From NCBI GenBank assembly GCA_002087915.1, contig LWDP01000004.1:1-64000 (forward strand): a DNA stretch of 64,000 nucleotides, read 5' to 3'. This DNA comes from Enterospora canceri (lineage: Eukaryota > Microsporidia > Enterocytozoonidae). Both the position numbers and the translations under genes were made by a program. Positions 5,523-37,112 of this stretch are shown here, piece after piece; within the stretch, counting starts at the first letter, position 1, and the number at the start of each line of letters is the position of its first letter. The notes under the pieces are model-generated. The model ran no database searches. It saw only the letters and a list, made by a program, of their open reading frames with translations, and was not told the origin of the DNA.

Positions 5523-7004
5523 TCATTCCTTTATTGGCTTTCCAGCAAGTATCATCTCATCACACATCAATAAGTTGATTGCGGTGTAAACAGCATTTGT
5601 AAATACGTTCCCTAACACCGTTGCATTCTCAATGACCTCCTCTTCGTCTCCAACTGCCAGTAACTTGGCATACTCCTCCTGTGGATTCCCACCACTGTTT
5701 TTGATCAGTGTCTTACAGAGTGCCTCATACGTCCTGATCAATATCTCGTATCCAACTGAATCAGCTGGATTCACATTCCTGTTCCTGAGCATCTTGATCA
5801 ATGAGACGTAGAGGTGTCTTCCACCCCTGATACAGCACTTGTCTCTCACAGCCAGCATCACTGCAACCAGAGTCCCCTTGATACTCTGCCTGATTCTGCC
5901 GTAATCCACGTTGCCACGAATCAGAATGGTACAGGCTCCCTTCATTGGAACACCCTCAATGAACGTGTAGACTTCTTCACCAACTCGCTCCACCCTCATC
6001 GTCTTGGCGTATCCCAGTGAATCGAGACTCAGCTTGTTCTCATCTGTGACTATTCTGCCCCCACACATTCCAACCAGTCTCTCCAGGTTCTTCCTCTTTG
6101 CCCTTCTCACTGCCGTAATCCCATTTGACCCAAGCAGCCCGAGACTCGTCAAATCGATTCCCTTCTCATTCACCACCAGTAGCTCATTTCCCTTCTTCCT
6201 GCACTCCTTGGCCAATTCGACTATTTTGTTCACCTTGTTCAAAATGAAGTCGTTTTCTCTCCTGGCAAACTCCTCTCGCTCTCCAATCGTCGAATAGACG
6301 AATTCAGTCTCCGTTTCTGGCTTCTCGTACTCCATCGACATGTTTGTCACCAGAATGCATACGTCATTCAGCTCATCCGGCATATCCTGGTGCCTTGGAC
6401 CGTGGTCCAGAACAAGCCCAGCCACAAACCGCGAGTCTCTCACGTCTCCTCCTTCCATCTTCAGTGTCTCAATCAGCTTCACGTCTGCCGTGTGCTTCAG
6501 TGCCTCCAGAACAATCTCAGTCAAACAGCCTGAATTCCTCGACTTGGTCGAAAGAGTCGCTCTCACCAATGCCCTCAGGTTCGAGTCATCCAGTGGAAGC
6601 AGACTGTTCTTCAGGTGCTGTGACACGTCATCGGCTGCCAGCTGCAGCGAATTCGCAATCTGGGCCACCTTTGACCCGTCTGAGTAGTACGAAAATGCAC
6701 CTGTGAATATCTCGCATATGCTGAGGATGTAGGTGACAATTCCGTCACCAACACGCTGGTGGATGCTGTTGGCCGACCTAGTTATCACAATTGACGTGGG
6801 ATGGCTGTACTTTATTTCCCTACAAAGTGCTATCCCATCCTTCGTCAAACTAAGCTTGTTTCCGCCACTAACTAAGGCCTTGTACGTTCCATTCGGCCCA
6901 AGACACGGGGCAAAGAGCTCCCTGAGCTGCGCACACGTCAAGTTGTTGTACGCCATGGCCTGCCCCTCCTGCGTGTACTGCGCCTCTGATTTGGTCGAAT
7001 TCAT
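5523..7004 (-). CDS. CCT6: CCT chaperonin zeta subunit
   Basis: This is a group II chaperonin subunit. The N-terminus has the LGPNGTYKALVSGG nucleotide-binding region and LTKDG, followed by HPTSIVITRSA, close to the HPTASLIAK signature of CCT6. GIDLTSLGLLGSNGITAVRRAKRKNLERL also matches zeta. It folds actin, tubulin and WD40 proteins in the cytosolic TRiC ring. GDGIVTYIL stands where GDGT is usual, so the catalytic-loop Thr is Ile, an oddity for an ATPase. The start at 7004 follows CCCA; 493 residues against about 540 is typical shortening. Confidence 0.88.
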   Translation of the reverse strand: MNSTKSEAQYTQEGQAMAYNNLTCAQLRELFAPCLGPNGTYKALVSGGNKLSLTKDGIALCREIKYSHPTSIVITRSANSIHQRVGDGIVTYILSICEIFTGAFSYYSDGSKVAQIANSLQLAADDVSQHLKNSLLPLDDSNLRALVRATLSTKSRNSGCLTEIVLEALKHTADVKLIETLKMEGGDVRDSRFVAGLVLDHGPRHQDMPDELNDVCILVTNMSMEYEKPETETEFVYSTIGEREEFARRENDFILNKVNKIVELAKECRKKGNELLVVNEKGIDLTSLGLLGSNGITAVRRAKRKNLERLVGMCGGRIVTDENKLSLDSLGYAKTMRVERVGEEVYTFIEGVPMKGACTILIRGNVDYGRIRQSIKGTLVAVMLAVRDKCCIRGGRHLYVSLIKMLRNRNVNPADSVGYEILIRTYEALCKTLIKNSGGNPQEEYAKLLAVGDEEEVIENATVLGNVFTNAVYTAINLLMCDEMILAGKPIKE

Positions 7005-12731: not shown

Positions 12732-13202
12732 TTAATACCTGTAACTATTCATATGGATGTTTCTGGGTTTGTTCCTATTGCGCTTGTTAGTGAACCAGTT
12801 GTTGACTTGTTTAGTTGAAATCATGCAAATGTTGGCTATTTTTAGTTTCTCTTCATCAGATGGATACTTATTGCTCCTATAGCTCTCTTCCAAAGTATCA
12901 ATAATTTTACGACTGAATCGCTTAACCTTTTTGTCACAGGTTTGGACTTCTAAACTGGCTTGGCACGTGCTATCACGTAGTTCAATTAGCATTTGGTTGA
13001 CGAGGGAGCGTCTATAGCTTTCTAAAATTTTTTGCAGCTCAGCTTTGGTGGTAAATGAAACCTGTGGTTTGAAATTGAAATTGCATGTCATTGTATATTG
13101 TTCCTCAATTTTCTCAATGTTGCTTAGGATGTTCTGAACATTGTGTGTATATGTTTCTCGTATTTTCACTAGTTTACGACTTAAATCTGTTCTATCGGTC
13201 AT
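12732..13202 (-). CDS. Homeodomain protein, typical 60-residue class (HD2-like)
   Basis: The homeodomain occupies about residues 89-148 and ends with QVNNWFTNKRNR, giving W48, F49, N51 and R53. Counting back gives L16, Y20, Y25 and P26 with no extra loop residues, so it is a typical, non-TALE homeodomain. The N-terminal 88 residues are helical and charged. ACCCC lies five bases before the ATG at 13202. It is divergent, across 134 bases, from a TALE homeobox gene. It is probably a transcription factor, and a mating-type-like role is inferred from the pairing. Confidence 0.88.
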   Translation of the reverse strand: MTDRTDLSRKLVKIRETYTHNVQNILSNIEKIEEQYTMTCNFNFKPQVSFTTKAELQKILESYRRSLVNQMLIELRDSTCQASLEVQTCDKKVKRFSRKIIDTLEESYRSNKYPSDEEKLKIANICMISTKQVNNWFTNKRNRNKPRNIHMNSYRY

Positions 13203-13336
13203 CCTTAGGGGTTTTAACGGAACTCAAATACAAATAGTCTAAAGTATTAAACTGGACCAATATGCTACTGATGACTACATGTCAAACTGGTTAAAATTTC
13301 ATAAATCACATGTCAAACACATCAAATAACCCCAAA

Positions 13337-13924
13337 ATGAAAACAGTAGAATTGGAAAACATTACAAAGCTGCTAAGGAAGTATGAAGAGGATTACATCT
13401 ACAAGAATGTCACCAAAGAAGAGCTCTATGCAAAACTAAATGGATACTACGACAAGTTTAAGGAGATTAACAAGGAAGAAACAAAATCAGGTAAGGAAGT
13501 CATTATTGACTTGTATCTGTGTCTCTTTAGAATTCAAGCTCTTTTTGAATTTGAAACTAAGTTAACTACGGCATTATATACTAGTCAAATCAATGAAAGA
13601 GAAACCATGCCAGCCAAAACAATAGAAGAAAACAACAAAAGTATTGAAAATTCATATGATGGTGAAAAATCCCACAAAGACATGCTTTCTTATGAGAATC
13701 ATAAATTTCGGAAGCCTAAACGTGCTAATTACAGTAATCAAGTAAGCAAAGCCCTTAAATCATGGCTACGAGAAAACATGAATAACCCGTATCCTAATGA
13801 TGATGAAAAGAATGAACTGATTAGACAAACAGGATTAGACTCAACACAAATCAATAACTGGTTCATAAATGCACGACGGCGGATTTTACCTTACATGAAA
13901 AGCAAATACATGAAATATGAGTGA
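13337..13924 (+). CDS. TALE-class homeodomain protein (HD1-like)
   Basis: The 195-residue product carries a C-terminal homeodomain (about 125-187) with PYP at 151-153 and [12 protein letters not shown] at 172-183. The spacing between helices 1 and 2 contains the three extra residues that define the TALE superclass (PBX, MEIS, fungal HD1). Residues 1-120 are mostly helical and could be a dimerisation region. The start at 13337 follows ACCCCAAA; an in-frame ATG at 13310 has no such context. It forms a divergent pair with the typical homeobox gene to its left. Confidence 0.88.
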
Positions 13925-14091: not shown

Positions 14092-14370
14092 ATGGGCATT
14101 GACGAGCTACTTTCATTCAAAAAAATCGTGAAAGAAATGTACTGTAAAGCGCTTGAGATAGAAACAGATACAGATTTTAATGCTCTTGTTAAAAGCCACC
14201 TGGAGAAAATGAAAGAAGAAGAGAAGCATAACTTAGCCAAAAAATTTGCATCCAAACTCTATAGTGATTTCCGAAATGATTTGCTAGACAACACCAAACC
14301 AGTTAACCTCCCCCAAGAAGTCGATGACCTCACCTGTGCCCTTGATAAAATCCTCTCTCCCAATCAATAA
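14092..14370 (+). CDS. Small helical protein, unknown
   Basis: This encodes 92 residues, preceded by GACCCTTTA immediately before the ATG, which supports a real gene. The sequence is acidic and predicted helical throughout (FNALVKSHLEKMKEEEKHN), with a proline-containing C-terminal third. There is no signal peptide or membrane segment. It lies between the homeobox pair and Nup155 on the same strand. I recognise no family. Confidence 0.65.
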   Translation: MGIDELLSFKKIVKEMYCKALEIETDTDFNALVKSHLEKMKEEEKHNLAKKFASKLYSDFRNDLLDNTKPVNLPQEVDDLTCALDKILSPNQ

Positions 14371-36026: not shown

Positions 36027-37112
36027 ATGACAAAGTTGAGTTTTGAGGATGGCTCAGATACTGAATCAGTTAAGTCTATTTTACATAAAAATAATGATAA
36101 ACGCATAAACATGGGTAAGAAAACAAACAATATAGACGAACAAGGTAAGAGATGCAACATGAGTGACAATAGGGAGCAAGAAGCCAAGATACAGCCAACA
36201 ATGGTACAGGGACCAGACTGTACCAGAATATACGATATGTCAGTATTTAAGGAAGTGAAAGAGAACCAGTCTGAATCACCCTACAGGTGCAATGCAATTA
36301 GAAGAAGAGAAATGAGTAGAACTATGGCAGACTTACAGGAAATGGCAACAAAACAGTCTAATATTGAGCTAAGCAAAGAAGACCTATCTGAATCATCCTG
36401 TATTATTTTGAGTTCTGAAGAAAGCAGTGAAATAGAAATCAAAGAAGTCAAAATGATCAAAATACCAAGAAATGAATTTAATCTGAGAGATGCCATCAAT
36501 AGGGTGGATATTCTGAATGTGAATGGAATCAGAATCACAAAGAATGATTTGTGTAGATTGTTGCCTGGAGTATGGCTCAATGACAAACTGATCAATGCGT
36601 ATATGACACTTCTGGCTACCAAATTCAGCCGTGTTAAATTCTATAACACGTATTTCTTGGAGTCAGCCACCCTGGGAGGCCAAACTGACTCAAACAAAAC
36701 ACGCTGTAATGTTGATTACGCTAAAGAAAGAAGAGACCTAAGAAAGTACGAAATGGCCGTCTTTCCAATCCACTCTAACGCACATTGGATCATGGCCAGG
36801 TTTCAGAGAAATGTCCTCTACGTCTACGACTCACTCGATACAAACTGCTATAGGGAAATATACACATTAAGGCGCATTCTGGAGAATATCACAGGTAATA
36901 AAATCAATACAGCCAGTCCAGCTGCTTTCAAGGAAACTGGGCCAATTCCAAAACAGTTCAATGGCAGTGATTGTGGCGTATTCCTGTGCATGTACAGCAA
37001 GAAGATTGCAGGAGACTACGCCTTCTATAATGGAGACATGAATGAATACAGAAAGAGAATATGCCATGAATTGGTTGAATGTCGCATATTATACAGTCAC
37101 AAGAAAAAATAG
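36027..37112 (+). CDS. ULP1: Ulp1/SENP-type SUMO protease
   Basis: A C48 cysteine peptidase: catalytic H253 (SNAHWIM), D268 (YVYDSL), oxyanion Q310 and nucleophile C316 (PKQFNGSDCGVF). GVWLNDKLINAYM, the Ulp1 WL(N/D)D element, is at 181-193. The N-terminal 140 residues are disordered and include CIIL at 125-128 followed by Ser/Glu, a plausible SUMO-interacting motif. It processes SUMO and removes it from targets. The start follows AACCCTGTTTT. Confidence 0.94.
   Translation: MTKLSFEDGSDTESVKSILHKNNDKRINMGKKTNNIDEQGKRCNMSDNREQEAKIQPTMVQGPDCTRIYDMSVFKEVKENQSESPYRCNAIRRREMSRTMADLQEMATKQSNIELSKEDLSESSCIILSSEESSEIEIKEVKMIKIPRNEFNLRDAINRVDILNVNGIRITKNDLCRLLPGVWLNDKLINAYMTLLATKFSRVKFYNTYFLESATLGGQTDSNKTRCNVDYAKERRDLRKYEMAVFPIHSNAHWIMARFQRNVLYVYDSLDTNCYREIYTLRRILENITGNKINTASPAAFKETGPIPKQFNGSDCGVFLCMYSKKIAGDYAFYNGDMNEYRKRICHELVECRILYSHKKK

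What the first reader, a model, noticed from the sequence alone, without database searches (positions are those of the whole stretch)
12732..13924. Divergent typical and TALE homeobox genes, like a fungal HD1/HD2 mating-type locus
The two starts are 134 bases apart in opposite directions. Counting the homeodomains shows that the left gene is the typical 60-residue class (L16, Y20, Y25, P26, W48, N51, R53), while the right gene has the three extra residues of the TALE class with WFINARRR. This heterologous HD2/HD1 pairing in divergent orientation is the arrangement of basidiomycete mating-type loci. From memory, a linked homeobox pair was proposed as a putative mating-type locus in Encephalitozoon cuniculi. 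The N-terminal helical regions could carry heterodimerisation specificity.
Basis: partly seen in the sequence, partly recalled or inferred. Interest (0 to 1): 0.75.

Follow-up and report, generated by a model that had tools for sequence, protein, structure and literature searches.

The report
Microsporidian paired homeobox mating-type-like locus
Two head-to-head homeobox genes in a tiny parasite genome match the layout of fungal mating-type loci, and relatives of one of them come in allele-like versions that differ only in the part expected to choose a mating partner, so whether these parasites have mating types can now be tested directly.

Summary
Window 12732-13202(-) encodes a 156-aa typical-class homeodomain protein; 13337-13924(+) a 195-aa TALE protein with the three-residue insert. 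The starts are 134 bases apart, each preceded by CCCC. They are the only two matches above the Homeobox_KN cut-off in this 2.24-Mb genome with ten homeobox matches. Every homologue tested (64 typical, 65 TALE) scores the matching window gene best among those ten. The two classes share eight contig lengths, five of them at most 40 kb, so the genes probably travel together. A homeobox mating-type locus was proposed for E. cuniculi in 2003, but no idiomorphs were seen there.

New here: the typical gene occurs as allele-like variants in Hepatospora and one unnamed lineage. Their C-terminal ~90 residues differ at 0-1 positions, their N-terminal 66-67 at up to 41, all within residues 7-69, inside two long predicted helices. 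That is the pattern of multiallelic basidiomycete HD genes. Allelism versus paralogy is unproven, the TALE gene shows no such pair, and no DNA or biochemical test was possible. Best reading: a heterodimeric HD regulator with self/non-self specificity.

The parts
12732..13202 (-). typical (HD2-class) homeobox gene, 156 aa; called HD1/HD-1 in some microsporidian annotations
   Evidence: homologues; 64 of 64 of them score it best among ten homeobox proteins of the genome
12759..12938 (-). homeodomain of the left gene, residues 89-148
   Evidence: position count; Pfam match residues 94-145
13002..13157 (-). residues 16-67 of the left protein: far part of helix 1, the turn and first part of helix 2; corresponds to the segment that is hypervariable between allele-like relatives
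   Evidence: AlphaFold helices 2-39 and 50-92; positions of differences in P0115/P0120 and P0104/P0110/P0116
13203..13336 (.). 134-base divergent intergenic region with CCCC upstream of each start (13208-13211 on the minus strand; 13330-13333 on the plus strand)
13277..13287 (+). first copy of the direct repeat ACATGTCAAAC, holding TGTCA, a TALE-type core (recalled); possible autoregulatory site
   Evidence: 32 of 5000 shuffles have an exact repeat of 11 or more
13308..13318 (+). second copy of the direct repeat ACATGTCAAAC
13337..13924 (+). TALE (HD1-class) homeobox gene, 195 aa (204 aa if started at 13310); called HD2/HD-2 in some microsporidian annotations
   Evidence: 65 of 65 homologues tested score it best among ten homeobox proteins of the genome
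13715..13882 (+). TALE homeodomain stretch (Pfam Homeodomain residues 127-182 of the 195-aa protein; Homeobox_KN residues 143-182)

Best explanation
The two genes encode the two subunits of a heterodimeric homeodomain transcription factor of the fungal HD1/HD2 type. Each protein has an N-terminal helical dimerisation module and a C-terminal DNA-binding homeodomain. In the typical protein the module is two long helices, probably a hairpin, whose far half (about residues 16-67) varies between alleles and decides which partner is accepted. In a cell or nucleus pair carrying two different alleles, TALE and typical subunits from different alleles pair and switch on (or repress) the post-fusion, sexual or diplokaryotic programme; subunits of one allele pair poorly. 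The shared 134-base promoter allows co-expression and perhaps autoregulation. Shown here: the two classes, divergent arrangement, family membership of both genes, recurrent co-location on contigs of the same length, confidently predicted N-terminal helices, and sharply bounded hypervariability in two relatives. Inferred: that those variants are alleles, the hairpin packing, heterodimerisation, self/non-self discrimination, the mating role, and that it holds in the window's species.
For: Classes and geometry. Only two matches above the Homeobox_KN cut-off genome-wide, and they are neighbours. 64 of 64 typical and 65 of 65 TALE homologues tested score the matching window gene best among ten. Eight contig lengths recur between the TALE list and the typical list, seven of them at 5 kb or more where 0.01 matches are expected by chance. 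Allele-like variants: Hepatospora P0115/P0120 differ at 32 residues, all within 17-67, and at 0 of 91 from residue 68 on; P0104/P0110 at 22 of 66 N-block and 0 of 88 C-block positions; P0104/P0116 at 37 of 66 and 1 of 88. Other pairs of like N-block divergence differ in the C block by at least 9.1% (N 0.15-0.35, only 4 pairs), 8.2% (0.35-0.55, 34 pairs) or 25% (0.55-0.65, 22 pairs). Among the 30 other pairs with C-block divergence up to 0.25 the N/C ratio never exceeds 5.5; for the P0116 pairs it is about 49 to 55. P0106 and P0110 differ at residue 32 and otherwise only within 41-64, a mosaic as expected from recombination. N-terminal parts are modelled as helices with high pLDDT. MATa1 is among the tied top structural matches of the typical homeodomain. 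Spo11- and Mnd1-family sequences are in the genome.
Against: E. cuniculi isolates in PMC2866331 show no distinct alleles at three HD clusters (passage). PMC5701793 says the Paramicrosporidium HD pair organisation is not conserved in other Microsporidia and that allelic divergence is absent there (passage). Among 66 of the 89 TALE proteins no pair shows an identical C block beside a divergent N block. Contig lengths of the four ENA typical variants and of P0115 and P0120 do not recur in the TALE list, so linkage is not shown for the variants themselves. The three Encephalitozoon matches are chromosome-sized contigs (230-279 kb) and show only the same chromosome. The genome of the window has one copy of each gene, and its Spo11-family matches lie in two frames. 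The N block is more divergent than the C block in 1467 of 1478 other pairs, so unequal constraint explains part of the pattern. The variants' DNA and sample origin could not be seen; paralogy or assembly effects remain possible.
Confidence: 0.55

Rival explanations
1. A conserved heterodimeric or co-regulated pair of developmental transcription factors (for example for sporogony) inherited from the fungal ancestor, with no mating-type function now. The N-terminal region diverges quickly because it is weakly constrained, and the allele-like sets are species-level or neutral variation.
For: No alleles in E. cuniculi isolates. A TALE homologue is present in Vavraia culicis, in which meiosis has not been observed (PMC4435813, passage). 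The N block is more divergent than the C block in 1467 of 1478 other typical pairs.
Against: Weak constraint alone does not readily give 32 changes in 51 residues beside complete identity in the flanking 16 and 91 residues, including linker and tail, which in the comparable other pairs diverge by at least 9%. The variable segment ends near the same place (residues 64-69) in both lineages.
Confidence: 0.25
2. The allele-like variants are paralogues within a genome, homogenised by gene conversion in their homeodomain parts, or products of misassembly; they say nothing about alleles.
For: Hepatospora entries include three typical (P0115, P0120, P0126) and two TALE proteins (P0004, P0018). P0004, P0018 and P0126 share the contig length 39834, so more than one pair seems to exist. 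The variants lie on short contigs of 0.7-2.3 kb.
Against: The variable segments are co-linear and of equal length, and the pattern appears independently in a named species and in an unnamed ENA group with three main forms. Short contigs are also what an assembler may leave at a heterozygous locus (inference). Multiple HD pairs are themselves typical of some basidiomycete loci (recalled).
Confidence: 0.2
3. Mating type, if any, is set by the HMG-box sex-related locus, and this HD pair is an ordinary regulatory pair.
For: The HMG locus is the candidate mating-type locus in PMC2866331 and, for Edhazardia and Vavraia, in PMC4435813 (passages). This genome has an HMG gene on C26.
Against: PMC2866331 says the limited base changes at its sex-related locus do not support idiomorphs (passage). 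The HMG gene found here is a 180-aa open frame with two HMG-box matches, more like a general HMGB protein (inference). Its neighbours were not examined.
Confidence: 0.1

Closest known systems
Encephalitozoon cuniculi linked HD genes proposed as a putative mating-type locus (Bürglin 2003, known here from its citation in PMC2866331)
   Same: Linked homeobox genes in a microsporidian. E. cuniculi, E. romaleae, E. hellem and E. intestinalis TALE proteins are homologues of the right gene; the last three species also have typical homologues of the left gene on chromosome-sized contigs of the same length as their TALE genes.
   Different: No alleles seen among E. cuniculi isolates. That ECU10_1470/1480 is the counterpart of this pair is recalled, not shown by a call; no hit named as an E. 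cuniculi typical protein was in the list. Orientation and spacing there were not checked; the 2003 paper is not held.
Basidiomycete HD (b or A) mating-type locus: Ustilago maydis bE/bW, Coprinopsis A, Sporidiobolus HD1/HD2
   Same: Divergently transcribed HD1/HD2 pair; variable N-terminal recognition region beside a conserved homeodomain (features as in PMC2916851 and PMC10977897, passages).
   Different: Proteins here are short (156 and 195 aa) with little beyond the homeodomain at the C-terminus. No basidiomycete N-terminal mating domain appears in the Pfam results shown. Function untested.
Paramicrosporidium saccamoebae HD1/HD2 pair (PSACC_01945/01946)
   Same: Neighbouring HD1/HD2 genes in a rozellomycete relative of Microsporidia, organised like basidiomycete loci (passage).
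   Different: That paper reports no allelic divergence there and says the organisation is not conserved in Microsporidia. The present window contradicts the second point.
Saccharomyces MATa1/MATalpha2
   Different: In yeast the two genes are on alternative idiomorphs, not head to head in one haploid genome (recalled).

Membership tests
fungal HD1/HD2 mating-type locus | one TALE (HD1) and one typical (HD2) homeobox gene side by side | tested here: met
   no other match above the Homeobox_KN cut-off in the genome
fungal HD1/HD2 mating-type locus | divergent transcription from a short shared intergenic region | tested here: met
   134 bases between starts if the TALE gene begins at 13337, 107 if at 13310
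fungal HD1/HD2 mating-type locus | several alleles per species with a hypervariable N-terminal recognition region and conserved homeodomain | tested here: inconclusive
   allele-like variants of the typical gene in Hepatospora and one unnamed lineage; none seen for the TALE gene in 66 of 89 proteins; not testable in the window's species (one copy); negative in E. cuniculi isolates
fungal HD1/HD2 mating-type locus | heterodimerisation only between products of different alleles | not testable with these tools
   helical N-terminal parts predicted for single chains only
fungal HD1/HD2 mating-type locus | control of the post-fusion sexual programme | not testable with these tools
   Spo11- and Mnd1-family sequences show only that some meiotic genes are kept
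fungal HD1/HD2 mating-type locus | Pfam Mating_N/Mating_C domains of basidiomycete HD1 proteins (recalled as PF12731/PF12737) | tested here: inconclusive
   not among families listed for the two window proteins or among the 25 shown for 54 and 61 sequences; the full lists of 91 and 90 families were not shown
microsporidian HD pair | both members belong to the same families as Encephalitozoon TALE and typical proteins | tested here: met
   64 of 64 typical and 65 of 65 TALE homologues, Encephalitozoon proteins included, score the window gene best among ten homeobox proteins of the genome
microsporidian HD pair | both genes on one contig in other species | tested here: met
   eight shared contig lengths, 0.53 expected in all and 0.01 expected at 5 kb or more; inferred from lengths, contigs not read; three of the eight are chromosome-sized
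microsporidian HD pair | the two genes adjacent and divergent in other species | not testable with these tools
   no relative's DNA could be fetched
microsporidian HMG sex-related locus | HMG-box gene flanked by a triose phosphate transporter and an RNA helicase | not tested
   HMG gene located on C26; neighbours not annotated

The most novel reading that the evidence does not exclude
Microsporidia have a multiallelic self/non-self homeodomain mating-type locus. The HD1/HD2 compatibility system known from basidiomycetes also operates in these reduced intracellular parasites, with a compact N-terminal helical module as specificity determinant and recombination within it creating new specificities; Hepatospora carries more than one such pair.
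Probability: 0.4. Interest if true: 0.9.

Novelty: new member of a known kind. Interest (0 to 1): 0.7.

Why it matters
Whether and how Microsporidia mate is a long-standing question. For both candidate loci (the HMG sex-related locus and the HD clusters) no idiomorphs were found in E. cuniculi. If the hypervariable segment found here is allelic, the HD pair becomes the mating-type locus to type in field populations. It would give a marker for outcrossing, a possible reason for the paired nuclei of many species, and evidence that HD-type mating compatibility is older than the Dikarya. It also shows where to look: residues ~16-67 of the typical protein.

Tried and rejected
Contig-level synteny: relatives of the pair were sought in viral contigs and genome contigs; none encoded a relative. 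Linkage elsewhere is therefore inferred only from equal contig lengths.

A second allele in the own genome: none found.

Target sites: the 11-base repeat occurs four times in the genome against nine for the reversed-pattern control, so it is not enriched; with one mismatch it is not enriched in the window either (4 found, 2.57 expected). Only its pairing in the 134-base gap is notable, and mildly so (32 of 5000 mononucleotide shuffles).

Trans-specific classes in Encephalitozoon: E. intestinalis against E. romaleae differs at 25 of 66 N-block and 7 of 85 C-block positions, while E. romaleae against E. hellem differs at 7 of 66 and 13 of 85. Fisher p = 0.003, picked after looking and without correction; the TALE gene does not show the same discordance. 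A hint only.

TALE homologues P0055, P0056, P0057, P0060 and P0062 looked allele-like at first, but their linkers differ and the contrast is ordinary.

Both genes being the same class was considered because the KN profile also matches the left gene (44.3 bits). Rejected for lack of the three-residue insert, though the left domain is TALE-like in helices 2-3.

The Bürglin 2003 paper is not held. Ironside 2007 (PMC1853083) holds no occurrence of homeobox or homeodomain. PMC5415576 was looked at in passages and gave nothing on this pair.

Mended after a check against the calls: 'reciprocal best' was too strong; N-block divergence exceeds C-block divergence in nearly all, not all, pairs; the hairpin is inferred from two helices; three of eight shared contig lengths are chromosome-sized.

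Full report
WHAT IS THERE. The window lies in a 2,242,678-base, 75-contig genome (contig C36). Around 13 kb two homeobox genes stand head to head. The left gene (12732-13202, minus) encodes 156 aa and the right gene (13337-13924, plus) 195 aa, or 204 aa if started at 13310. The left homeodomain has the typical 60-residue spacing. The right one carries three extra residues before PYP and the WFINARRR helix. Pfam agrees: left Homeodomain 48.9 bits and Homeobox_KN 44.3; right Homeobox_KN 74.7 and Homeodomain 31.1. The left domain thus lacks the TALE insert but resembles TALE domains in helices 2-3, and its best PDB sequence matches are Extradenticle and PBX, aligned with a three-residue gap. The right domain is closest to PKNOX1, Meis and TGIF.

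NEIGHBOURS AND GENOME. Flanking genes look like ordinary housekeeping genes by Pfam: an iron-hydrogenase-like protein, an AAA-ATPase-like protein (below the cut-offs), APC10, an SGS-domain protein, a Nup133-like nucleoporin and a Tsr1/Bms1-like protein. The genome has ten homeobox matches above cut-off. Only the two window genes pass the Homeobox_KN cut-off, and neither has a close second copy. Spo11-family and Mnd1-family sequences are present, so some meiotic machinery is kept, though the two Spo11-family matches lie in different frames.

RELATIVES. A search with the TALE protein gave 89 proteins at E <= 0.001 among 181 candidates, the first being the window's own. A search with the typical protein gave 8 among 18 candidates, and one with their alignment gave 64 among 1217. 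Hits with an organism name are mostly Microsporidia, Encephalitozoon, Hepatospora, Vittaforma, Nucleospora and Spraguea among them; the tail of the TALE list also reaches an insect, a nematode and a plant. The two named hits are Vittaforma and Pancytospora, which suggests, without proving it, a parasite near the Enterocytozoonida (grouping recalled); the species was not identified. All 64 typical homologues (P0090-P0153) and all 65 TALE homologues tested (P0002-P0066; 24 of the 89, the window's own among them, not given) score the corresponding window gene best among the ten homeobox proteins of this genome. In Hepatospora and some other annotations the typical gene is called HD1 or HD-1 and the TALE gene HD2 or HD-2. 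This is the reverse of the basidiomycete class names, where HD1 is the TALE class (recalled).

LINKAGE ELSEWHERE. Contigs could not be read, but eight exact contig lengths recur between the two lists: 1288, 5921, 19498, 31389, 39834 (Hepatospora), 230122 (E. romaleae), 277983 (E. intestinalis) and 278853 (E. hellem). With lengths jittered by 10%, 0.53 matches are expected overall and 0.01 at 5 kb or more. The three Encephalitozoon lengths are chromosome-sized and say only that both genes are on one chromosome; the other five point to closer linkage, the 1288-base one being the least certain statistically. PMC2866331 (passages) lists six genes in three E. cuniculi HD clusters, ECU10_1470 and ECU10_1480 among them, that had been proposed as candidate mating-type loci (citing Bürglin 2003, not held). 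PMC5701793 (passages) says that the Paramicrosporidium HD1/HD2 organisation is not conserved in Microsporidia; the present window shows that it occurs in at least one.

ALLELE-LIKE VARIANTS. Among 55 of 65 typical sequences (those of 145-200 aa; ten shorter or longer ones left out) all 1485 pairs were compared on either side of window residue 68. Seven pairs, from two groups, are the seven with the least C-block divergence. In Hepatospora, P0115 and P0120 share residues 1-16 and everything from 68 on (0 of 91 differences), yet differ at 32 residues, all between 17 and 67. In an unnamed ENA group, P0104 and P0106 are near-identical (4 of 66); P0110 matches P0106 except at residue 32 and within 41-64; P0116 differs from P0104, P0106 and P0110 at 37, 37 and 41 of 66 N-block positions and at 1 of 88 C-block positions. 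Other pairs with N-block divergence 0.15-0.35 (only 4 pairs) differ in the C block by at least 8 of 88; those at 0.35-0.55 (34 pairs) by at least 7 of 85, median 29%; those at 0.55-0.65 (22 pairs) by at least 22 of 88. Linker plus tail, which in those three classes diverge by at least 14%, 9% and 43%, are identical or differ by one residue. The N block is the more divergent one in 1467 of 1478 other pairs, but among the 30 with C-block divergence up to 0.25 the ratio never exceeds 5.5. Taking the lowest C-block rate seen in other pairs, the chance of 0 of 91 is 4e-4 and of at most 1 of 88 is 3e-10; pairs are not independent, so these are guides only. The segment lies in two long predicted helices (2-39 and 50-92, mean pLDDT 88.5, pTM 0.53), probably a hairpin. 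[quoted passage not shown]

WHAT SPEAKS AGAINST. E. cuniculi isolates showed no distinct alleles. The TALE gene shows no comparable pair in the 66 of 89 proteins compared. Hepatospora entries include three typical and two TALE proteins, some apparently on one contig, so paralogy is a live alternative. TALE P0004 and P0018 differ at 90 of 114 N-block but only 14 of 94 C-block positions; the other pairs of similar C-block divergence (0.14-0.16) have N-block divergence of 0.33-0.46. DNA, sample origin and species of the ENA group are unknown.

PROMOTER. The 134 bases hold an exact 11-base direct repeat, ACATGTCAAAC, 31 bases apart, which occurs only four times in the genome, no more than its control. 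It contains TGTCA, a core bound by TGIF/Meis-type TALE proteins (recalled). Autoregulation is a guess.

VERDICT. The locus is best filed as another member of the proposed microsporidian HD pair that works like, and is probably homologous in parts to, the fungal HD mating-type locus. The allele-like hypervariability is the new point. I did not see it in print in nine searches of the open-access library that combined Microsporidia, Encephalitozoon or Hepatospora with homeobox, homeodomain, HD1/HD2 or mating terms. Of these I saw listings, some of them capped, and passages from four of the papers listed; subscription journals are not covered. It makes the question of microsporidian mating types testable from existing reads.

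Noticed in passing
G000:C66:6121-6860 (minus), L023 and L025: The Spo11-family gene is split over two reading frames: the N-terminal match (6693-6860) and the Toprim match (6121-6513) are in different frames, so it is either an assembly error or a broken or frameshifted gene. Described only.
   Followed up: partly
Hepatospora eriocheir proteins P0004, P0018, P0126, P0115, P0120: Apparently more than one HD pair: two TALE proteins and one typical protein share a contig length of 39834, with two further typical variants on short contigs; reminiscent of multi-pair A loci of mushrooms (recalled).
   Followed up: partly
G000:C75:28468-28629 and 36042-36164: Two more homeobox matches lie about 7.4 kb apart on contig C75 in opposite orientation, perhaps a counterpart of other E. 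cuniculi homeobox clusters.
   Followed up: no
G000:C26:29384-29827 (minus), L015: The only HMG-box locus found is a 180-aa open frame with two HMG-box matches; whether it is the microsporidian sex-related HMG gene was not checked.
   Followed up: no
P0111, P0112, P0113, P0114 (Encephalitozoon and an unnamed relative): N-terminal divergence of the typical gene does not follow that of the C block: E. intestinalis stands apart in the N block while E. romaleae, E. hellem and an unnamed relative share nearly the same one.
   Followed up: partly
window 14092-14370: A 92-aa ORF just downstream of the TALE gene without a Pfam match above its cut-off.
   Followed up: no
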